Assembly: GCF_000419445.1 (NCBI RefSeq)
Contig: NZ_AULK01000002.1
Coordinates: forward strand, 1-64,000
From: Gryllotalpicola ginsengisoli DSM 22003
GTDB taxonomy: Bacteria; Actinomycetota; Actinomycetes; Actinomycetales; Microbacteriaceae
Reading direction: 5' to 3'
Length of the DNA: 64,000 nucleotides
The position numbers were made by a program, and so were the translations under genes. The notes beneath the pieces are model-generated. The model saw only the letters and a program-made list of their open reading frames with translations. It made no database searches and was not told where the DNA came from. Position 1 is the stretch's first letter; every line of letters starts with the position of its first letter. Positions 2 to 11,753 of this stretch are shown in pieces.

Positions 2-1490
2 GGCTCTTCGGACTTCGGGTGGGGGCTGGGGGTTGTGCCGGGCCGTGGCGTAGTGGTGTGAGGCGGGTCGAGGGCCCGAGGATCGGTAGCGACCAAGCAA
101 CCCTTCCCCGGGAGTCCTCGACCCGTGCCCGATGCTACGGGGTGCGCCGCCGCGTGCCCATCTTCTGTTGTCTACTGTGATCGTTGTGATGTGCTCGTCG
201 GTCTCGGCGGGCTTCACGTCATCGCTGCGCAGCGCCGCGGCGATGGGGTGCTCGTCATCGATGTCGAGTCACCGCCGGGGTCGGTGGGGTGCCCGCGATG
301 CGGGCAGGTCGCCGAGTCCAGGGGCCGTAAGACGCTCGTGTTGATCGACGCGCCGATGGGCGCAGGGCCGGTGCGGGTGCGATGGCGCAAGCGCCGGTGG
401 CGTTGCGTCGATGATGCGTGCGCACAGAAGTCGTTCACCGAGCAGGACACTGCCGTTGCTGCTTCGCGGGCGCAGCTCACGGCCCGGGCCCTCTCGTGGG
501 CGGTCGCTCAGATGCGGCGGGAGAACGCCTCGGTGCAAGGCATCGCCCGGCAGCTCGGGGTGTCCTGGAAAACGGTGTGGCGGCACGTCAAGCCGGTGCT
601 GGAGCGCCGCGCAGCGGACGAGTCCCGCTTCACTGGTGTCACCACCCTTGGCGTCGATGAGCACCTCTGGCACCACGTCTCGACCAAGCCGGTCGAAGAC
701 GGCGGGCGGGGTCCGAAGGAACTGACCGGGATGGTCGATCTGACCCGTGACGCCAGCGGACGCGTCCGCGCCAGGCTGCTGGACCTCGTGCCCGGTCGTT
801 CCGCGAAGGCCTACGCCGACTGGCTGCAGGAACGCGGCGAGCAGTTCCGCGACCAGGTGCAGATCGCGACGCTGGACCCGTTCGCCGGATACAAGAAGGC
901 CCTCGATGATGAGCTCGACGACGCGGTCGCCGTGCTCGACGCTTTCCATGTCGTCAAGCTCGGCACCCAGGCCGTGGATGAGGTCCGTCGCCGCGTCCAG
1001 CAGGACACCCTCGGCCACCGTGGCCGCAGGGGCGACCCGCTCTACGGGATCCGCAACACCCTCCGCGCCGGACGCGAGAACCTCACCGACCGACAGACTC
1101 AGCGCCTCGCCGACGCGTTCGCCGGGCGGGAGGAGCACGTCGAGGTCGAGGTCGCCTACGAATGCGCCCAGAAGCTCCGCGACGCTTACCGCCGCGCTGA
1201 CCTCGCCGAGGGCAAGAAGATCGCCGAGCAGGTGCTCGACTCGTTCCCGTCCTGCCCGATCCCCGAGATCGCCCGCCTCGGCAAGACCCTCACCCGCTGG
1301 CGGGACGCGTTCCTGGCCTACTGGACCACAGGTCGCTCATCCAACGGCGGCACCGAGGCCGTGAACGGACTCATCGAACTCGCCCGCCGCGTCGCCCGCG
1401 GCTTCCGCAACTACGACAACTACCGACTCAGAATGCTCCTCATCGCCGGCGGCCTCGACCCCACCACCCCCACCTGAAGTCCGAAGAGCC
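2..1490 (+). mobile_element. Complete ISL3-family insertion sequence
   Basis: The element is bounded by imperfect terminal inverted repeats of about 24 bp with one mismatch: positions 2-25 begin GGCTCTTCGGACTTC and the reverse complement of 1467-1490 begins with the same 15 bases. It carries one transposase gene. ISL3 elements usually make an 8-bp target duplication. The right flank reads cgtttact, and only one base (t) of the left flank is in the window; it agrees with the last base of that octamer. Copy number and full target duplication cannot be seen here. Confidence 0.9.
125..1477 (+). CDS. ISL3 family transposase
   Basis: The 450-residue protein moves the enclosing insertion sequence by cut-and-paste DDE chemistry. 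An N-terminal zinc-finger-like segment (CPRCGQ near residue 56, a second Cys pair near 95) precedes a helix-turn-helix (GIARQLGVSWKTVWRHV, about 140-155). The C-terminal DDE_Tnp_ISL3 domain has candidate catalytic residues Asp178 (LGVDEHLW), Asp272 (VLDAFHVVKL) and Glu411 (GGTEAVNG). The GTG start at 125 keeps the whole zinc-finger region, and the stop lies inside the right inverted repeat, as is usual in compact ISL3 elements. Length is normal and no frameshift is seen, so it may be active. There is no passenger gene. Confidence 0.93.
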   Translation: MPDATGCAAACPSSVVYCDRCDVLVGLGGLHVIAAQRRGDGVLVIDVESPPGSVGCPRCGQVAESRGRKTLVLIDAPMGAGPVRVRWRKRRWRCVDDACAQKSFTEQDTAVAASRAQLTARALSWAVAQMRRENASVQGIARQLGVSWKTVWRHVKPVLERRAADESRFTGVTTLGVDEHLWHHVSTKPVEDGGRGPKELTGMVDLTRDASGRVRARLLDLVPGRSAKAYADWLQERGEQFRDQVQIATLDPFAGYKKALDDELDDAVAVLDAFHVVKLGTQAVDEVRRRVQQDTLGHRGRRGDPLYGIRNTLRAGRENLTDRQTQRLADAFAGREEHVEVEVAYECAQKLRDAYRRADLAEGKKIAEQVLDSFPSCPIPEIARLGKTLTRWRDAFLAYWTTGRSSNGGTEAVNGLIELARRVARGFRNYDNYRLRMLLIAGGLDPTTPT

Positions 1491-3526: not shown

Positions 3527-4480
3527 TCAACCAGCGGAACGCGCGGACTTCGGGAAGCTGATCGCCCGGCGTCCGCGCTGCTTCTCGTCCTTCGCAAGCC
3601 GGTGCAGCTCGGCGCGGGTGATCTCGGCGAGCCGGTCGGCGGCATCCAGCTTCTCGCCCGTGCGGCGAAGCAGCGAGAGCGGAGTGCGCGCGTCCTCGTC
3701 GCGCACGGGCACATAGGTCACGCCCTCGAAGGCGTGCAGCGACGTCAGGAACGGCACGACCGCAACGACCAGCCCGCTCGCGATCGTGGAGAGCAGTACG
3801 ACGTCGTCTTCGGCGTACATCCGGATGGTCGGCGAGAACCCCGCGCGCAGGCACGCGCCCGTGATCGAGTCGAACGCCGTGGGAGACGAGTCGCGGTGGA
3901 ACATGGCGAACGCTTCGCTGCGCAGATCGCTCAGGTCGACCGACGTGCGAGACGCGAGCGGATGCGACGACGGCACGGCGGCCACGAGCGGTTCCATTCC
4001 GAGCAGTTCGAAGTCGATTCCGCTCGGGGCGTCGAGGTACCGCTCGAAGGCGACGTCGATGTGCCCGGCGGTGAGCTCGTACGAGACGTCCTGGCGGTCC
4101 AGCGCGCGCAGCGTCACCTTCGTCTGCGGGCGATCGGCCCTCAGCTGCGGAATGATGCGCGGCATCAGCCCGGCGAAGACCGACGAGATGCCCGACACGC
4201 GCAGCGGGATGAAGGCTGTGGGGTCGTCCGTCACGGCGGCCTCGACGGCGGATGCGTGCACGAGCAGCGCGCGAGCCTCGGCCGCGAGCACCCGCCCGTG
4301 CGGGGTCAGCTCCGGCGCTCGGCGAGGGCCGCGATCGAAGAGGGCGACGCCGAGCTCGCGCTCGAGGCGGGAGAGCGTCTGGCTCAGAGCTGACTGGCCC
4401 ACTCCCAGTCGCGCGGCGGCGGCAGTGAAGCTCCGATCCTGCGCCACGGCGAGGAACGCGCGTAGGTCGCGTAAATCCAC
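3527..4480 (-). CDS. LysR family transcriptional regulator
   Basis: This 317-residue protein has the LysR winged helix-turn-helix at residues 1-60 (DLRDLRAFLAVAQDRSF; ARLGVGQSALSQTLSRLE) and a periplasmic-binding-like effector domain at about 90-300. LysR proteins usually control the divergent operon with a co-inducer that is the pathway substrate or product. Here the divergent operon encodes an amino-acid-type importer and amine-oxidising flavoproteins. A T-N11-A box lies between them at 4594-4606. The C-terminus is repeat-derived: the stop TGA is part of GGTTGAG, the opening of a family A element, giving the ending RSAG. Confidence 0.9.
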   Translation of the reverse strand: MDLRDLRAFLAVAQDRSFTAAAARLGVGQSALSQTLSRLERELGVALFDRGPRRAPELTPHGRVLAAEARALLVHASAVEAAVTDDPTAFIPLRVSGISSVFAGLMPRIIPQLRADRPQTKVTLRALDRQDVSYELTAGHIDVAFERYLDAPSGIDFELLGMEPLVAAVPSSHPLASRTSVDLSDLRSEAFAMFHRDSSPTAFDSITGACLRAGFSPTIRMYAEDDVVLLSTIASGLVVAVVPFLTSLHAFEGVTYVPVRDEDARTPLSLLRRTGEKLDAADRLAEITRAELHRLAKDEKQRGRRAISFPKSARSAG

Positions 4481-4593: not shown

Positions 4594-4606
4594 TATCGAT
4601 CCGATA
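4594..4606 (+). promoter_or_regulatory. Candidate LysR box (T-N11-A palindrome)
   Basis: TATCG-ATC-CGATA is a perfect dyad matching the T-N11-A form of LysR sites. It lies 68 bases before the substrate-binding-protein start and 114 bases before the LysR start, suitable for coupled control of both. Confidence 0.6.
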
Positions 4607-4673
4607 CATCACCTACCGTGAAGTTTCAACGCATCACCCGACCACTCCGTCCGCTGTCACAAGGGAGAACAAC

Positions 4674-5495
4674 GTGCACCGCAACGCTGTCCGAGCGACC
4701 ATGCTGGCCACTGCGGCCTCTGTCGCCCTCACCCTCACCGCCTGCTCGGGCGCCGCGTCGTCAAGCGACGCCACCGACGACCTCGGCACTCTCACCCCCG
4801 GGGTCCTGAAGATCGGCACGACCAGCAATCAGAAGCCCTACGCGTACACGGAGAACGGCAAGCTGGTCGGCTTCGAGGTCGACATGGCGCGCGCCGTCGC
4901 GAAGGAGGCCGGCCTGAAGCCGGAATTCGTGCAGGAGGACTTCTCGGCGCTGCTCCCGGCCGTCGCCAATCAGCAACTCGACGTCGAGTTCGCCTCGTCG
5001 TCGGTCACCGCCGAGCGGAAGAAGATGGTCAATTTCACCCACATCTACTTCATCGGCTACATCTCGGTCATCACCAACGAGTCGTCGATCACGGATGACC
5101 CGGCCAGCCTCAAGGGCAAGAAGCTCGGCCTGCTCCAGGGCAGCATCGAGGACGACTACGCGCAGAAGAACTTCCCCGGGGCCACGATCGTGCGCTTCCC
5201 CGACGAGCCGTCGATGGACCAGGCACTCAAGGCCCACAGCGTCGACGCGCTGTTCGACGACGCGCCGCCGGCGCAGGCCCTCGCGAAGGCCAACCCTTCG
5301 ATGTCGATCCCGATCAACATCGAGGTCAGCGACATGCCGGTCGCCGCCGCCGTCAGCAAGAAGAACCCGAAGCTGCTCGCCGCGCTGAACAAGGCGATCG
5401 ACAAGGTCATCTCCTCCGGCAAGTGGCTGAAGATCGACAAGAAGTACTACCCGGACCAGCCGGTGCCGAAGCAGTTCGAGCCGACTGACGGCTGA
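4674..5495 (+). CDS. Amino-acid-type ABC transporter substrate-binding lipoprotein
   Basis: This 273-residue lipoprotein captures the substrate outside the membrane for the importer encoded next. It has a signal peptide with lipobox LTAC (Cys near residue 24) and a family 3 solute-binding fold (GVLKIGTTSNQKPYAY, GFEVDMARAVAKEAGL, FTHIYF, KGKKLGLLQGS). GTG at 4674 is chosen because AAGGGAG lies 7-9 bases upstream and the signal peptide starts there. It is the first gene of a six-gene operon whose later products are sarcosine-oxidase-like flavoenzymes. The ligand is therefore inferred to be an N-methylated or other secondary amino acid, but binding residues alone do not show this. Confidence 0.88.
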   Translation: MHRNAVRATMLATAASVALTLTACSGAASSSDATDDLGTLTPGVLKIGTTSNQKPYAYTENGKLVGFEVDMARAVAKEAGLKPEFVQEDFSALLPAVANQQLDVEFASSSVTAERKKMVNFTHIYFIGYISVITNESSITDDPASLKGKKLGLLQGSIEDDYAQKNFPGATIVRFPDEPSMDQALKAHSVDALFDDAPPAQALAKANPSMSIPINIEVSDMPVAAAVSKKNPKLLAALNKAIDKVISSGKWLKIDKKYYPDQPVPKQFEPTDG

Positions 5496-5527
5496 GCCGC
5501 GGCGACGGAACGCGGAGCGTGACCATC

Positions 5528-6313
5528 GTGGAAACCATCCAGAACCTCATCTCGACCTTCCTCAATCCGCAGTACCTTGTCGTGGCGCTGCCCGACATCC
5601 TCAAGTACGGGCTCTGGAACACCCTGTTCATCGCCATCATCGCGACGGCAATCGGCATCGTCATCGGCCTCGTGCTCGCCGCGCTCGGGGTGTCGAACAG
5701 CCGGGTGCTGAGGTGGTTGGCCGGCATCTACACCGACATCTTCCGCGGGCTGCCGGCCGCGCTGACGATCCTCGCCATCGGGGGAGGGTTCGCCCCGATC
5801 GTGAACCCGATCACCCACGGCAACCCGTACCCGCTCGGCATCATGGCGCTCGCCCTGATCGGAGGCGCGTATATCGGGGAGATCTTCCGGGCCGGCATCC
5901 TCGCCATCGACAAGGGGCAGCTGGAGGCGTGCCGCGCGCTCGGCATGAGCTACAACGCCGCCATGTGGAAGGTCGTGATCCCCCAGGGCATCCGCAGTGT
6001 GCTGCCCTCGCTCGTGAACCAGTTCATCGCGATCGTCAAGGACTCGAGCCTGGTCTACTTCCTCGGCTTCGCCACGGCACAGCGCGAACTGTTCCGCGTC
6101 GGCGAGGACGCATCCGTGACCTACGCGAACCTGTCGCCGCTGTTCACAGCCGGAGTCTTCTACCTGATCATCACCGTGCCGCTGACGCACCTCGTCAACG
6201 TGATCGACCGGCGGCTGCGGCACGGGCGTGCGGTCTCCGACGCCACCACGCTCGACGAGGACCTCGTCGCCGAGGTGCCTCTGCCGGCCCGCGCGGCCGT
6301 GGGAAGGGAGTGA
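5528..6313 (+). CDS. Amino-acid ABC transporter permease
   Basis: This 261-residue membrane protein of the HisM/GlnP family has about five membrane segments; the His/Glu/Gln/Arg permease signature covers residues 40-100. The ATPase-contacting EAA loop is LEACRALGMSYNAAMWKVVIPQG (about 130-152, quoted in part). It would form the channel, probably as a homodimer since only one permease gene is present. GTG at 5528 is preferred over the in-frame GTG at 5519 because GGAG at 5514-5517 is 10 bases from the former and only one from the latter. Confidence 0.88.
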   Translation: METIQNLISTFLNPQYLVVALPDILKYGLWNTLFIAIIATAIGIVIGLVLAALGVSNSRVLRWLAGIYTDIFRGLPAALTILAIGGGFAPIVNPITHGNPYPLGIMALALIGGAYIGEIFRAGILAIDKGQLEACRALGMSYNAAMWKVVIPQGIRSVLPSLVNQFIAIVKDSSLVYFLGFATAQRELFRVGEDASVTYANLSPLFTAGVFYLIITVPLTHLVNVIDRRLRHGRAVSDATTLDEDLVAEVPLPARAAVGRE

Positions 6314-6317
6314 AGCG

Positions 6318-7091
<774 letters not shown>

Positions 7092-7093
7092 GC

Positions 7094-8275
7094 GTGGGCT
7101 TCGATGCAGAGGTCGGCGTCGTCGGCGTCGGAACCATGGGCTCGCAGGCCCTCTGGCAGTTGGCACAACGTGGAGTGTCCGCGATCGGCTTCGAGCAGTT
7201 CGCGCCCGGCCATGACCGGGCCGGCGCCGGGGGAGAGAGCCGGCTGTTCCGCACTGCGTACTTCGAGAGCAGCCGCTACGTGCCGCTGCTGCGCCTCTCG
7301 AAACTGCTCTGGCGCCGGCTCGAGGCGGCAACCGAGACGAGCCTGCTGCACGTGAACGGCGCGCTCATGATCGGCGAGGAGGGCGGCGACTTCCTCGCCC
7401 GCGTGCAGCGCTCGATCGACGAGCACGGCATCGACCACGAGGTGCTCGACGCGCAGGAGATGCAGCGGCGGTACCCGCAGCACCGCATAAGCGCCGGCCA
7501 GGCGGCGATCCTTGACCGGGAGTCGGGCTTCCTCCGGCCCGAGCTCGCGGTCGCCTCGGCCGCGCGGGCCGGGGAGAGCCTCGGCGCGCGCATCCGTCGC
7601 CGTTCACGCGTCGACGAGATCCGCTTCGAAGACGACGCCGTCACCGTGCTCGCCGACGGAGAGCTCTTCCGGTTCCGCCGCCTCATCGTCGCGGCCGGCG
7701 CCTGGACGTCGCAACTGCTGCTCGGCCTCGCGCCGCTGACGGAGGTCGTGCGCATCGCGATGACCTGGTGGCAGGCGAAGCAGCCCGCCGCGTACACCGA
7801 GGATGTATTCCCCGTCTTCGCGCGCGTCACCGACGGATACGACATCTCGGGGTGGCCGTCGCTCGATGCCGCGACCGTGAAGGTCGGGCTGAACAACGGA
7901 TGGGACCGTGTCGGCGATCCCGACGCGCTCGACCGCACCGTTCCCGACGCGCTGTTCGAGGAAATCCGGAACGCCGTGGGCGAGCTGATGCCCGGGCTCA
8001 TCCCCGAGCCGGTGCGCATCGGCGTCTACATGGACGGCTACACGGCCGACCATGACCCCTACGTCGGCCCGCTGCAGTGGGACCCGCGGGTCACCGTGCT
8101 CGGCGGGTTCAGCGGGCACGGCTTCAAGATGGCGCCCGCCATAGGCCTCGCGGCGGCGGATTACGCGACCGAGAACGGCACCGAGTTGCCGATCGGATTC
8201 CTGCACCCGAACCGCTTCGTCACGAATGTCACCGCAGCCGACCGCATGCGCTTCCGGCGCACGGCCGCTGCTTGA
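7094..8275 (+). CDS. FAD-dependent N-methyl-amino-acid/sarcosine oxidase-like protein, without the flavin-linking Cys
   Basis: This 393-residue flavoprotein of the DAO / monomeric sarcosine oxidase - N-methyltryptophan oxidase group would oxidise a secondary amine. The dinucleotide-binding motif is GVGTMGSQALWQLA (residues 11-24) followed by Glu in IGFEQF. The C-terminal GGFSGHGFK matches the family. In characterised members FAD is covalently bound to a Cys just before that region; the aligned position here is Tyr312 (IGVYMDG). FAD is therefore probably non-covalent, or the enzyme uses another acceptor. GTG at 7094 starts 2 bases after the ATPase stop. A second homologue follows directly. Confidence 0.85.
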   Translation: MGFDAEVGVVGVGTMGSQALWQLAQRGVSAIGFEQFAPGHDRAGAGGESRLFRTAYFESSRYVPLLRLSKLLWRRLEAATETSLLHVNGALMIGEEGGDFLARVQRSIDEHGIDHEVLDAQEMQRRYPQHRISAGQAAILDRESGFLRPELAVASAARAGESLGARIRRRSRVDEIRFEDDAVTVLADGELFRFRRLIVAAGAWTSQLLLGLAPLTEVVRIAMTWWQAKQPAAYTEDVFPVFARVTDGYDISGWPSLDAATVKVGLNNGWDRVGDPDALDRTVPDALFEEIRNAVGELMPGLIPEPVRIGVYMDGYTADHDPYVGPLQWDPRVTVLGGFSGHGFKMAPAIGLAAADYATENGTELPIGFLHPNRFVTNVTAADRMRFRRTAAA

Positions 8276-8293
8276 AAGAAGGAGAGAGAACAC

Positions 8294-9484
8294 GTGGAAA
8301 CCATCACGACAGATGTCGCAGTCGTCGGCCTCGGCGCATTCGGATCGGCCGCGTTCTGGCGGCTGGCGGCCCGGGGCGTCGACGTCGTCGGCATCGAGCG
8401 TTTCGGGCTGGGGCATCCGCTCGGGTCCTCGCACGGGGTGACCCGGCTCTTCCGCGTCGCGTGCCAGGAGCACCCCGGCCTGTCGGCCGTCGCGCGCAAA
8501 TCCCTCGAGCTGTGGACGGCGCTGGGCGCCGCGAACGACGAGGTGTACGTGAACCAGGTGGGCTGCGTCTCCTCCGGGGCGCCGACGTCGCGGCCTGTCG
8601 CCGGCGCGGCCCTCGCCGCGAAGACGGCGGGCCTGCCGGTGACCCACCTGGACCACGAGCAGTTCACCGCCGCCTACCCGATGTATGCCGAACCCGGCAT
8701 CGATGAGAACACGGTCGCCGTCTTCGACCCGGAAGCAGGGATCTGCTACCCCGAGCGTGCAGTGCGTGCTCAGGGCGAGGCGGGCATCGCGGCAGGAGGG
8801 CGCGCCCTGCTCGACACCCGAGTCACGTCGATCGAGTTCACGGATGCCGGCGTGCGGGTGCTCACCCCCACCGTGATCATCGAAGCGAAGCAAGTGATCG
8901 TGTCGACCGGGGCCTGGAACAAGAAGCTGCTTCCCGAACTTCCGCTGGGGCCGCGGCGCACGCCGCTGTTCTGGTGGAAGCCGAAGGACGACGCCACGAG
9001 CTCGTTCGACCTCTCGAGCTTCCCCGCGTTCATCCACGAGCTGCCCGACGGCCGCCATCTCTGGGGTCACGGCTCGAGCGAAGACCACCTGATCAAGATC
9101 GGCATGGAGGACAGCGAGGCTCCCTTCACCGCCATCGACGCCGACACGGTCGACCGGTACGTCCATCCGCACGAGGACATCGACCAGCTCTCCTCGTGGA
9201 TCGCCGACACTTTCCCCGAGATCGACCCCACTCCCGTGAAGGTGATCCCGTGCATGGTGACCAACTCGCCCGACGGCCAGTTCCTGGTCGGCCGACCTGG
9301 AGACGACCCGCGGCTGATCATCGCCGGCGGTGACCACGGCCACGGCTTCAAGCACGCCGCCGGTGTCGGCGAACTGCTGGCGCAGCTGGCGACCGGCGAG
9401 GAGTTGTACGCCGACATCGAGTTCATGAACCCCAACCGGTTCGAGGAAGTCGCGGCGGCGCGGCGGGTTGCGACGGCGGTGTGA
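8294..9484 (+). CDS. FAD-dependent N-methyl-amino-acid/sarcosine oxidase-like protein, flavin-linking Cys present
   Basis: This 396-residue paralogue of the preceding gene has the same architecture: dinucleotide-binding GLGAFGSAAFWRLA near residue 10, acidic IGIERF, and C-terminal GGDHGHGFK. Cys320 (VIPCMVTN) sits where monomeric sarcosine oxidase and N-methyltryptophan oxidase carry the 8-alpha-S-cysteinyl-FAD linkage, so this copy is the likelier covalent flavoenzyme. The catalytic product would be the demethylated amino acid, an aldehyde and peroxide. GTG at 8294 is supported by AAGGAGAG at 8279-8286. It overlaps the SDR gene by 4 bases (GTGA), implying translational coupling. Confidence 0.87.
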   Translation: METITTDVAVVGLGAFGSAAFWRLAARGVDVVGIERFGLGHPLGSSHGVTRLFRVACQEHPGLSAVARKSLELWTALGAANDEVYVNQVGCVSSGAPTSRPVAGAALAAKTAGLPVTHLDHEQFTAAYPMYAEPGIDENTVAVFDPEAGICYPERAVRAQGEAGIAAGGRALLDTRVTSIEFTDAGVRVLTPTVIIEAKQVIVSTGAWNKKLLPELPLGPRRTPLFWWKPKDDATSSFDLSSFPAFIHELPDGRHLWGHGSSEDHLIKIGMEDSEAPFTAIDADTVDRYVHPHEDIDQLSSWIADTFPEIDPTPVKVIPCMVTNSPDGQFLVGRPGDDPRLIIAGGDHGHGFKHAAGVGELLAQLATGEELYADIEFMNPNRFEEVAAARRVATAV

Positions 9485-10173
9485 GCGGCGGCGTCGCACT
9501 CGTAACCGGAGCGTCGCGCGGCATCGGCAAGGCCATCGCGCTCGAGCTGTCGTCGACGCACACGATCATTGCCGGCGCCCGCACGGCCGAGGCACTCGCG
9601 CCGCTGCGCTCGCAGCTTCCGGATCTAGTTCCGTTCGTGTGCGACCTTGGGTCGGAGGCGCAGACCGCGGCGGCCGTGGCCGAGCTGGGCCTCACCGAGC
9701 TGGACGTGCTGGTCAACTCCGCCGGCGTCGCGGACGAGAGGCCGTTCGACACGTTCACGCGCGAGGACTGGCGGAAGCAGTTCGAGGTCAACGTGTTCGC
9801 CGTGGCGGACCTGACGGCCCGCCTGCTGCCGGCCCTGCGCGCGGCGCGCGGAACGATCGTGATGCTGAATTCCGGTTCGGGGCTGTTCTCCTACGCAGGC
9901 GGCTCCGTCTACACGGGCACGAAGTTCGCCCTGCGCACGATGGCCGATTGCCTGCGGGAAGAAGAGCGCACGAACGGGGTTCGCGTCACCTCCGTCCATC
10001 CGGGCTATGTCGATACCGACATGGGGCGGGGCGTCATCGAGCGCAAAGGGCCCGGGCAGACGTTCGTGCAGCCGCGGACCATTGCGAGCGCGGTGCGACT
10101 CGCCGTCGATGCGCCACCCGAAGCGCAGGTGGAGATGCTGTCCATCCGGCCGTCGAGAGGAACAGTTCTATAA
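9481..10173 (+). CDS. Short-chain dehydrogenase/reductase
   Basis: This 230-residue classical SDR has an NAD(P)-binding motif TGASRGIG (residues 9-16), a Rossmann Asp in VCDLGS, NSAGVAD, a catalytic Ser within LNSGSG and YTGTK (YxxxK). It is the last gene of the importer-oxidase operon and is coupled to the oxidase by a GTGA overlap, so it probably processes the aldehyde or keto product of the oxidases. The substrate is unknown. Arg at positions 13 and 38 (near ARTAEAL) would favour NADP(H), which is inference. Confidence 0.88.
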   Translation: MSGGVALVTGASRGIGKAIALELSSTHTIIAGARTAEALAPLRSQLPDLVPFVCDLGSEAQTAAAVAELGLTELDVLVNSAGVADERPFDTFTREDWRKQFEVNVFAVADLTARLLPALRAARGTIVMLNSGSGLFSYAGGSVYTGTKFALRTMADCLREEERTNGVRVTSVHPGYVDTDMGRGVIERKGPGQTFVQPRTIASAVRLAVDAPPEAQVEMLSIRPSRGTVL

Positions 10174-10238: not shown

Positions 10239-11702
10239 CTAGAACGGCGCGTCGTCGTCAACGGCGTCGTCGTCTGCGGCGCGGGCGGAGTGCGGGGGCG
10301 ACGGGGCGATCGGGATCTCGGGCTCGGTGCGGTAGTGACGACCGGTCGGTGAGATCCACTCGAGGATTCCACCGGCGTACTGCATGAGGCCCCACCCTGC
10401 CTCATGCTTGACATGGTGATGGTTCGCGCACAGGCAGGCCAAGTTGCCGAGCCGGGTGGGGCCGCCGCGGGCGTAGGCGATGGTGTGGTCGACCTCGCAC
10501 TGCTCGGCCGGAACATTGCACCCGGGCGCGCGGCAGTGGCGGTCGCGCAGTTGCACGATGCGTTTCAGCTCGGCGGGCACCCGGTAGGTCTTGCGGTCGA
10601 AGTCGACGATCGCGCCGGTGATCGGATCGGTGAGGATTCGACGCAGGCTCGGAGCCCGGGCGACCAACTCGCGCGCCTTGACCGGGTCGATCATGCCGAT
10701 GCCGGAAATGCTCGCCGGCGCGTCACCGCCCGCGAGCGTTGCGGCGGGAATGAGCACGCTCACAGAGATCGGCGCGCGGGCGGCGATCGTGGCACAGGTC
10801 GCGCTGCCCCCAGCCGCGATGACAGGGGCGGCGCCCTCGTCGGCGTTCTCAGCAGTGCCCGCGCCCGCCCCACCTGTCACTGCGCCGATGGTCACTGTGC
10901 CGTGGGCGAGCACTTCGACGAGCACGTCGGCTTCCAGCTGCCGCAGCGTCCGAGTGTCGCCGTGCGCTTGCGCCTCGTGAGCGGCATTGCGCATGCCGGT
11001 AGCGATCACCGCGGCATCCGTCGCATCAAGATACGCCGTCAACCACGCCATGCCGTCGCGGGCGCCCTCGACCCGCACGTGGCGCGCGGCCACCGCGCGC
11101 TCGTGACGGTCGGGGAGGGGCTGTGACTGCACCGTGTCGGCGATCAGCCGAAGCCGATGCTGAAACTGCCCGACGGACAGTTTTCGCGCCCACGGCATCG
11201 CCTCGCGCTGCACCGCCTCGCGCGCCGCATCATCGAGATCGGACGTCTCGCGCACGATTGCCTGCGCATGACCCAGCGAGATCTCGCCCGACTGCAGTGC
11301 CGCCAGCGCGACCTCGCAGTGCTCGATGAGCTCCCACGCGCCGCCGAGCTGGGCCGCCGCCGTGCGCGGACTGACGCGGGTCGCGGCTGCTACCTCCATC
11401 GCAGCAGCACGCCACCGCAACTCGCGGCAGCGCTGCTCGCTCACGTCGGCGCCGGTCGCCAGGGCATCCTCAGCATCGATACGCGCCTTCTCGAGGGCGT
11501 CGTCGCCCACGTGCCAAAGCTCGATCTGGCGCTGTGCCTGCAGCTGCGCGATCTGCGCATCGAGCGCCTGCACTCGTCGCAGCCGATCGGCGCAGAGGTC
11601 TTTCAGAACGAAATCGAGCTCGATCATGTCTGACGCGTCGACGGCGGAATCAAACACATGTTCTGAACTCATAGAGTCAAGGGTAGAGGGCGCCCCTGAC
11701 AT
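10239..11702 (-). CDS. DUF222 protein with HNH endonuclease motif (13E12 repeat type)
   Basis: This 487-residue protein belongs to the multicopy actinobacterial DUF222-HNH family. A DUF222 domain (about 50-370) is followed by a HNH/ββα-metal motif: CRAPGCNVP, CEVDHTIAYARGG, LACLCANHHHVKHEAGW (about 415-460). Paired Cys residues probably bind structural zinc, and DH...N...H is the nuclease core. The family is often called mobile or repeated, but its role is unproven. ATG at 11702 is preferred: GGGAG lies 6 bases upstream; an in-frame GTG exists at 11753 and another ATG at 11672. It is convergent with the SDR operon. Confidence 0.85.
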   Translation of the reverse strand: MSGAPSTLDSMSSEHVFDSAVDASDMIELDFVLKDLCADRLRRVQALDAQIAQLQAQRQIELWHVGDDALEKARIDAEDALATGADVSEQRCRELRWRAAAMEVAAATRVSPRTAAAQLGGAWELIEHCEVALAALQSGEISLGHAQAIVRETSDLDDAAREAVQREAMPWARKLSVGQFQHRLRLIADTVQSQPLPDRHERAVAARHVRVEGARDGMAWLTAYLDATDAAVIATGMRNAAHEAQAHGDTRTLRQLEADVLVEVLAHGTVTIGAVTGGAGAGTAENADEGAAPVIAAGGSATCATIAARAPISVSVLIPAATLAGGDAPASISGIGMIDPVKARELVARAPSLRRILTDPITGAIVDFDRKTYRVPAELKRIVQLRDRHCRAPGCNVPAEQCEVDHTIAYARGGPTRLGNLACLCANHHHVKHEAGWGLMQYAGGILEWISPTGRHYRTEPEIPIAPSPPHSARAADDDAVDDDAPF

Positions 11703-11753
11703 TGGCCGCTCCCGGCGGCGTGGTTGTGAAAAAGTATTCGATACTCGTCCCAC

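What the first reader, a model, noticed from the sequence alone, without database searches (positions are those of the whole stretch)
4594..10173. Six-gene importer plus two-oxidase operon, one oxidase lacking the flavin-linking Cys
An amino-acid ABC importer is followed directly by two sarcosine/N-methyltryptophan-oxidase-like flavoproteins and an SDR, with 2-18 base gaps or GTGA overlaps, and a divergent LysR gene with a T-N11-A box. Cys320 is kept in the second oxidase but the first has Tyr312 at that place. Division of labour (two substrates, two steps, or a heteromeric enzyme) is possible. The substrate is not one I can assign to a described pathway.
Basis: partly seen in the sequence, partly recalled or inferred. 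Interest (0 to 1): 0.55.

Follow-up and report, generated by a model that had tools for sequence, protein, structure and literature searches.

The report
Sugar-amino-acid importer with two oxidases
A bacterium carries a compact gene set that probably imports sugar-linked amino acids and cuts them with two related flavin enzymes, one of which lacks the cysteine that normally ties the flavin to the protein.

Summary
LysR (3527-4480, minus) diverges from SBP-permease-ATPase-OX1-OX2-SDR (4674-10173). OX1 Tyr312 aligns with MSOX Cys315; OX2 keeps Cys320. The lost Cys is not a local oddity: OX1 belongs to a well-supported clade of 87 tree rows, 74 without Cys, all with Asp/Glu at MSOX position 317, none with His45, and with the main active-site residues kept. 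The substrate can be narrowed. The binding protein's best solved relative is a deoxyfructosyl-amino-acid (Amadori compound) binding protein, 96% identical to that of an Agrobacterium soc-like operon (175.6 bits; next 128.5), and the permease falls in the same block. OX2 orthologues sit beside such importers in 7 of 8 rows of their clade; a more distant plasmid operon adds a BadF-type gene, mannose-6-phosphate isomerase and glutaminase. Best reading: import and oxidative cleavage of Amadori compounds, a soc-pathway variant with MSOX-family oxidases. OX1 probably binds FAD non-covalently. An obligate heteromer is disfavoured. Substrate and cofactor state are inferred, and known bacterial fructosyl-amino-acid oxidases could not be compared.

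The parts
3527..4480 (-). LysR-family regulator, divergent
   Evidence: PF00126 and PF03466; 57% identical counterpart at the same place in two Curtobacterium-type operons, 38-40% in L039, L128, L129
4594..4606 (.).
   Evidence: not conserved in Curtobacterium-type operons
4609..4621 (.). second T-N11-A dyad TCACCTACCGTGA, the better candidate LysR site
4674..5495 (+). solute-binding lipoprotein of the soc type
   Evidence: PF00497; best PDB hits 6hqh, 5l9o, 5lom, the last two named deoxyfructosyl-amino acid binding protein, E 1.3e-50
5519..6313 (+). ABC permease of the soc type
   Evidence: PF00528; 48-71% identity to eight soc-type permeases, 25-32% to seven other PAAT permeases
6318..7091 (+). 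ABC ATPase (PAAT type)
   Evidence: PF00005; GlnQ-like, below that model's cut-off
7094..8275 (+). OX1: MSOX-family flavoprotein without the linking Cys (Tyr312; Gly46 at MSOX His45; Asp314 at MSOX Tyr317)
8294..9484 (+). OX2: MSOX-family flavoprotein with linking Cys320; probable amadoriase
9481..10173 (+). SDR oxidoreductase, possible glucosone reductase
   Evidence: PF00106; 69-70% identical counterpart in two Curtobacterium-type operons, 29% in the Paraburkholderia operon

Best explanation
The locus is a scavenging operon for Amadori compounds (N-deoxyfructosyl amino acids, the early products of sugars reacting with amino acids). The LysR regulator is taken to sense substrate and switch on the importer. 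The soc-type binding protein, permease and ATPase bring the glycated amino acid in. OX2, a covalent-FAD MSOX-family oxidase, oxidises the C-N bond of the sugar-amine with O2, giving free amino acid, glucosone and H2O2. OX1, a sister enzyme with FAD held non-covalently, does the same on a different subset of conjugates. The SDR reduces the released dicarbonyl sugar, a job that the Gfo/Idh/MocA gene may do in the Agrobacterium soc operon. Shown here: gene content, homologies, residues, repeated linkage of these oxidases to soc-type importers, purifying selection. Inferred: the substrate, the reaction of each oxidase, the SDR's role, the cofactor state and the induction.
For: The SBP's best PDB matches are the deoxyfructosyl-amino acid binding protein, 47 bits above the next protein; that solved protein is 96% identical over 240 residues to the SBP of Agrobacterium L140. 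L140, beside repABC, reads LacI | SBP-permease-ATPase-Gfo/Idh/MocA-FAD oxidase, which fits socR and socABCD next to repABC in PMC4231840 (passages seen). The SBP of the Arthrobacter ZXY-2 operon gives the same ranking, 180.8-181.3 against 110.5 bits. Permease identity splits cleanly: soc-type block of nine 48-72%, seven other PAAT permeases 24-35% to that block. L131 has a LacI (43%) and SBP (67%) like those of L140, a soc-type permease and ATPase, and an OX2-type oxidase. L144 has an OX2-type oxidase, importer, BadF-type ATPase gene, mannose-6-phosphate isomerase and glutaminase, as expected for fructosyl-glutamine. Paraburkholderia L141 has LysR | oxidase-ATPase-SBP-permease-oxidase-SDR with unrelated oxidases. 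OX1 stands next to a soc-type permease in a Xanthobacteraceae MAG contig, L053, without OX2. Amadoriases give amine, glucosone and H2O2 (PMC5813194, passages). The carboxylate anchors Arg52 and Lys348, named in PMC12582975 (passages), and Lys265 are kept in both oxidases.
Against: No ligand or activity data. The window SBP is only 38% identical to the L140 SBP, and its binding residues could not be checked because the structure paper is not held. Of six soc-like SBP genes found in 394 class genomes (window included), three (G856, G080, G108) have no oxidase like OX1, OX2 or the L140/L141 oxidases in the 19 kb fetched. Eight of eight more distant OX2 homologues examined (42-45% to OX2) have no soc-type importer beside them. 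OX1-type oxidases elsewhere sit with SSS, MFS, Glt-symporter-like, NhaC-like and other ABC transporters and with hydantoinase genes, so OX1 may not act on Amadori compounds in general. The regulator is LysR, and the L140-type dehydrogenase and oxidase are missing. The nearest solved enzymes are sarcosine oxidases, not amadoriases.
Confidence: 0.58

Rival explanations
1. Uptake and stepwise oxidation of N-methylated, N-alkylated or cyclic amino acids: the importer brings in, for example, an N-methyl amino acid and OX1 and OX2 oxidise two substrates or two steps, releasing formaldehyde or a ring-opened product.
For: Both oxidases pass NCBI's N-methyl-L-tryptophan oxidase cut-off; nearest solved enzymes are MSOX, a Thermomicrobium sarcosine oxidase and MTOX; MSOX acts on sarcosine and weakly on proline and thioproline (PMC12582975, abstract start and passages).
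Against: The importer is of the soc type; OX2's clade has changed pocket positions in 8 of 8 rows (Tyr55 to Cys, Met245 to Ile, Tyr254 to Trp, Tyr317 to Val or Ile), though four other Cys rows also have Cys55 and seven Trp254; no gene of formaldehyde handling was recognised in the operon.
Confidence: 0.22
2. Uptake of an opine of the mannityl, octopine or another N-carboxyalkyl type, with OX1 and OX2 cleaving the secondary amine and the SDR working on the released sugar or keto acid.
For: The soc genes of Agrobacterium serve santhopine, which is both an opine and an Amadori compound (PMC4231840 passages); a secondary amine with a carboxylate fits Arg52 and Lys348.
Against: Nopaline-binding chains rank far below the deoxyfructosyl binding protein for the ZXY-2 SBP (58.1 against 181.3 bits) and are not among the best 60 of 95 shown for the window SBP. 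The overlap with the best explanation is large, since santhopine belongs to both.
Confidence: 0.12
3. OX1 and OX2 form one heteromeric enzyme in which only OX2 carries a linked flavin.
For: In the four loci with an intact close OX1 orthologue (window, L038, L135, L039) the next gene is OX2-type, in L039 cut short before the Cys region.
Against: OX2-type genes stand in importer operons without OX1 (L128, L129, L131, L144) and OX1-type genes in loci without OX2 (L041, L053 and others); OX1 keeps the main active-site residues; the nearest solved relatives are called monomeric.
Confidence: 0.06

Closest known systems
Agrobacterium soc (santhopine / deoxyfructosyl-glutamine) operon, socR-socABCD; L140 taken as an example
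   Same: soc-type binding protein, permease and ATPase with an amine oxidase and a dehydrogenase in one operon
   Different: LysR instead of LacI; MSOX-family OX1 and OX2 instead of the ThiO-like oxidase of L140 (18-19% identity); SDR instead of Gfo/Idh/MocA
Monomeric sarcosine oxidase / N-methyltryptophan oxidase (MSOX, SolA)
   Same: Fold (OX1: Z 52.8, 1.6 A over 377 residues; OX2: Z 49.1, 2.0 A over 374); Arg49, Arg52, Lys265, Lys348
   Different: OX1 lacks Cys315 and His45 and has Asp at 317; OX2 has Cys at 55, Trp at 254, Val at 317; 27-33% identity
Fungal amadoriases (FAOX / FPOX)
   Same: Proposed reaction; FAD linked to Cys in the fungal enzymes (PMC5459902, passages), as expected for OX2
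   Different: Distant: pairwise E 6e-4 for OX2; a profile of Cys-less rows reaches them at E 1e-16, about the level of glycine oxidases; folds match less well than MSOX
Bacterial fructosyl-amino-acid oxidases (Corynebacterium, recalled; an Arthrobacter enzyme in a reference list)
   Same: Proposed reaction
   Different: Known here only from titles in reference lists; sequences and papers were not available, so identity with OX1 or OX2 is untested

Membership tests
soc-type Amadori importer | binding protein closer to the deoxyfructosyl-amino acid binding protein than to other amino-acid binding proteins of known structure | tested here: met
   175.6 against 128.5 bits
soc-type Amadori importer | permease in the soc block | tested here: met
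   48-71% to eight soc-type, 25-32% to seven others
soc-type Amadori importer | binds deoxyfructosyl amino acids | not testable with these tools
   needs a ligand assay; residue list in a paper not held
soc catabolic operon | oxidase, Gfo/Idh/MocA dehydrogenase and LacI regulator of the L140 type | tested here: not met
   OX1/OX2, SDR and LysR in their places
MSOX/MTOX covalent-FAD oxidase: OX1 | Cys at MSOX 315 linking the flavin | tested here: not met
   Tyr312
MSOX/MTOX covalent-FAD oxidase: OX1 | Arg49, Lys265 and carboxylate anchors Arg52, Tyr55, Lys348 | tested here: met
   Arg50, Lys263, Arg53, Tyr56, Lys345
MSOX/MTOX covalent-FAD oxidase: OX2 | Cys at MSOX 315 | tested here: met
   Cys320
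MSOX/MTOX covalent-FAD oxidase: OX2 | anchors Arg52, Tyr55, Lys348 | tested here: not met
   Arg54 and Lys353 kept, Tyr55 replaced by Cys57
N-methyl-L-tryptophan oxidase (NF008425) | curated score cut-off 257 bits | tested here: met
   298.1 and 292.6 bits; 38 of 38 Cys-less rows also pass an E-value that I set to about that cut-off, so the model does not separate Cys-less enzymes
Amadoriase / fructosyl-amino-acid oxidase | oxidises fructosyl amino acids | not testable with these tools
   genomic linkage only
Bacterial fructosyl-amino-acid oxidase | sequence relation to the characterised bacterial enzymes | not tested
   sequences not available here; papers not held

The most novel reading that the evidence does not exclude
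The Cys-less clade (Asp/Glu at 317, no His45) may form its own covalent flavin bond, an 8-alpha-O-tyrosyl or 8-alpha-N-histidyl link at the old cysteine position. 44 of 74 Cys-less rows have Tyr there and 12 have His, both residues that link flavin in other families (recalled; the VAO-family abstract listed names both). That would be a second flavinylation chemistry inside the MSOX fold, beside the cysteinyl type in the same operon. Against it, 18 rows have Phe, Trp, Gln or Gly.
Probability: 0.06. Interest if true: 0.7.

Novelty: new variant of a known kind. Interest (0 to 1): 0.45.

Why it matters
It suggests a substrate class for an operon that automatic naming would call N-methyltryptophan oxidases, and it points to a large group of MSOX-family enzymes that lack the hallmark flavin-linking cysteine while keeping most of the active site. 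A Cys-less and a Cys-bearing sister in one operon are a natural pair for asking what the covalent flavin link is for. Oxidases acting on glycated amino acids and peptides are also used in glycated-haemoglobin assays (PMC5459902, abstract start).

Tried and rejected
Rejected: OX1 as a decaying gene (dN/dS between two Curtobacterium-type copies, L038 and L135, is 0.107 for OX1, 0.165 for its paralogue and 0.076 for OX2; dN/dS was not computed for the window's own copy, which is 65-67% identical in protein). Rejected: Cys loss as a private quirk (whole clade). Disfavoured: obligate heteromer. Led nowhere: gene calling trained on single high-GC loci failed for L038 and was redone with the window's codon table. 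Simple promoter and terminator scans gave one hit each, not informative. Paper searches for a non-covalent MSOX clade showed none in their listings (openly licensed papers only); one search was meant for the bacterial fructosyl-amino-acid oxidase and was badly worded. A search for operon precedents showed none in the 20 of 44 listings printed. No Cys-less relative was recognised among solved structures, but the 53 sequences were not checked for Cys one by one. Structure models could not be loaded into Python, so Tyr312 near the flavin rests on sequence alignment plus whole-fold agreement.

Limits of the counts: the search for related loci used peptide patterns from OX1, one of which (YMDGYTAD) spans the Cys position, and kept the best 80 of 164 loci, so 74 Cys-less rows of 126 overstates how common they are. 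A whole-genome search without such patterns gave 29 matches at E 1e-60 in 19 of 297 genomes (window included), of which 20 lack Cys and 9 have it. Three Cys-less genes appear twice among the 126 rows under two locus ids (L010/L133, L011/L132, L012/L134), so 71 distinct genes. Rows with BLAST scores under 150 bits, lengths outside 281-519, identical rows, and loci L009, L119-L124 and L139 were left out before the tree. Transporter adjacency (39 of 54) counts any run-mate with four or more hydrophobic segments, leaves out L109 and misses truncated permeases. The names soc, SocA, SocC and SocD for genes of L140 are mine, from their order and PMC4231840; the letters were not checked.
Full report
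Observation. The window holds a divergent LysR gene (3527-4480, minus) and six co-directional genes from 4674 to 10173: binding protein, permease, ATPase, OX1, OX2 and SDR. Gaps are 23, 4, 2 and 18 bases, then a 4-base overlap. OX1 Tyr312 and OX2 Cys320 both align with MSOX Cys315. OX1 also has Gly46 where MSOX has His45, and Asp314 where MSOX has Tyr317. Both keep Arg49, Arg52, Lys265 and Lys348 in MSOX numbering. Predicted models are confident (pLDDT 91.4 and 89.2) and match MSOX best (OX1 Z 52.8, 1.6 A over 377 residues; OX2 Z 49.1, 2.0 A over 374).

The Cys loss is a clade trait. In a tree of 126 rows (the two window proteins, 121 homologues, and MSOX, a Thermomicrobium sarcosine oxidase and SolA as references), 87 rows fall on one side of a branch with SH-aLRT support 99. 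All 87 have Asp or Glu at position 317 and none has His45 (one row does not cover it). 74 of them lack Cys315 (44 Tyr, 12 His, 7 Phe, 6 Trp, 3 Gln, 2 Gly); 13, of which eight are Arthrobacter, have Cys. The other 39 rows all have Cys and none has an acid at 317; 36 of these have His45 and 3 have Thr. Among the 74, Lys348 is kept in 74, Lys265 in 73, Arg49 in 73 (one gap) and Arg52 in 71. Parsimony needs two changes of the Cys state. Sampling leans towards Cys-less rows; the search without such patterns gave 20 of 29 Cys-less. NCBI's N-methyl-L-tryptophan oxidase model takes 38 of 38 Cys-less rows tested at an E-value that I set to about its cut-off.

Operon conservation. Between L038 and L135 all eight genes compared, LysR included, look constrained (dN/dS 0.06-0.29; OX1 0.107, OX2 0.076). 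The operon is accessory: 0 of 3 other genomes of the genus have OX1 at E 1e-40, and OX2 at E 1e-90 is in 8 of 398 genomes of the family, the window's own included. An ISL3 transposase gene lies at 512-1477.

Substrate clue. The binding protein's best solved matches are 6hqh, 5l9o and 5lom; the last two are named deoxyfructosyl-amino acid binding protein (175.6 bits; next chain 128.5). That solved protein is 96% identical to the binding protein of Agrobacterium L140, where, beside repABC, the order is LacI | SBP-permease-ATPase-Gfo/Idh/MocA-FAD oxidase. PMC4231840 (passages) puts socR and socABCD for deoxyfructosyl-glutamine, an Amadori compound of decaying plant material, next to repABC. That L140 is the soc operon is my inference from this. 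Arthrobacter dokdonellae L142 has the same order. Paraburkholderia L141 has LysR | oxidase-ATPase-SBP-permease-oxidase-SDR with oxidases only 17-22% identical to OX1 and OX2. Arthrobacter ZXY-2 L144 has LacI | OX2-type oxidase-SBP-permease-ATPase-BadF-type gene-mannose-6-phosphate isomerase-glutaminase; its oxidase is 45% identical to OX2. L131 has LacI and SBP like those of L140 (43% and 67%) with an OX2-type oxidase. L128 and L129 have LysR | OX2-SBP-permease-ATPase. In OX2's own clade 7 of 8 rows lie beside such an importer; the eighth (L130) stands 62 bases from a contig end with nothing soc-like on its visible side. Permeases split into a soc block of nine (48-72%) and seven others (24-35% to the block); a MAG contig with OX1 and no OX2 (L053) falls in the soc block.

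Results against. Of six soc-like binding-protein genes found in 394 class genomes, three have no such oxidase in the 19 kb around them. Eight of eight more distant OX2 homologues examined (42-45% identity) have no soc-type importer. Cys-less oxidases elsewhere sit with many transporter types: SSS, MFS, Glt-symporter-like and NhaC/ArcD-like by profile, various ABC types, an oligopeptide-like ABC set in Agrobacterium vitis, and genes that I read as a TRAP set from their sizes and position only. 39 of 54 have a transporter-like gene in the same run by a hydropathy count. So the clade as a whole is best called a group of amino-acid-like amine oxidases; the Amadori reading is for this operon.

Mechanism. 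The residues that hold the substrate carboxylate in MSOX (Arg52, Lys348; PMC12582975, passages) and those tied to oxygen reactivity (Arg49, Lys265; PMC5459902, passages) are preserved in both, so both should oxidise an amino-acid-derived amine with O2. Amadoriases release amine, glucosone and H2O2 (PMC5813194, passages). The SDR as a glucosone reductase is inference. OX1 as non-covalent is inference from the missing Cys. In FsqB, Lys448, which I take as MSOX Lys348, is needed for holding FAD (PMC6222107, passages), and OX1 keeps this Lys.

Regulation. Two T-N11-A dyads start 15 bases apart; the second (4609-4621) is the conserved one.

Novelty. A variant of a known kind: a soc-type importer joined to MSOX-family oxidases, one Cys-less. 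The listings of six searches of openly licensed papers showed no description of the Cys-less clade. Bacterial fructosyl-amino-acid oxidases are described in papers that I saw only as titles in reference lists; that one of them may have non-covalent FAD is recalled, not checked. If their sequences fall in either clade, part of this is already known.

Noticed in passing
L138:1385-6373 (own genome C2, 1.4-6.4 kb beyond the window end): Cluster of proline-racemase family, DHDPS family, Pyr_redox_2 with BFD domain, and DAO genes: looks like a 4-hydroxyproline degradation set (pathway name recalled).
   Followed up: partly
L138:14669-19377 and L139:3374-10690: A second OX1-like oxidase with His at the Cys site and Arg at Lys265 (L028 in the tree) lies with a D-2-hydroxyacid dehydrogenase, another DAO oxidase, an isochorismatase-family gene, an M24 peptidase-like gene, an FMN-dependent dehydrogenase and ABC-like genes read by eye.
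   Followed up: partly
window 512-1477: ISL3-family transposase gene upstream of the operon.
   Followed up: no
window 10239-11753: DUF222-domain protein directly behind the operon on the minus strand.
   Followed up: no
L054:8150-11960; also L050, L077, L080: Hydantoinase/oxoprolinase A and B genes follow a Cys-less oxidase in several loci; Pfam was run on the L054 pair only, the others by clustering.
   Followed up: no
L043:692-6968 and similar Bacillaceae loci: GntR/UTRA regulator, two DAO-cluster oxidases (one profiled, ThiO-like), a soxA-like Pyr_redox_2 protein and an SSS symporter stand in front of the Cys-less oxidase.
   Followed up: no
L143:8001-9167: Agrobacterium vitis plasmid gene annotated solA is an OX1 relative with Tyr-Met-Asp at the linking site, behind oligopeptide-like ABC genes.
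   Followed up: no
L039:2891-3874: OX2-type gene of Arthrobacter crystallopoietes ends early, before the Cys region; truncation or draft-assembly error.
   Followed up: no
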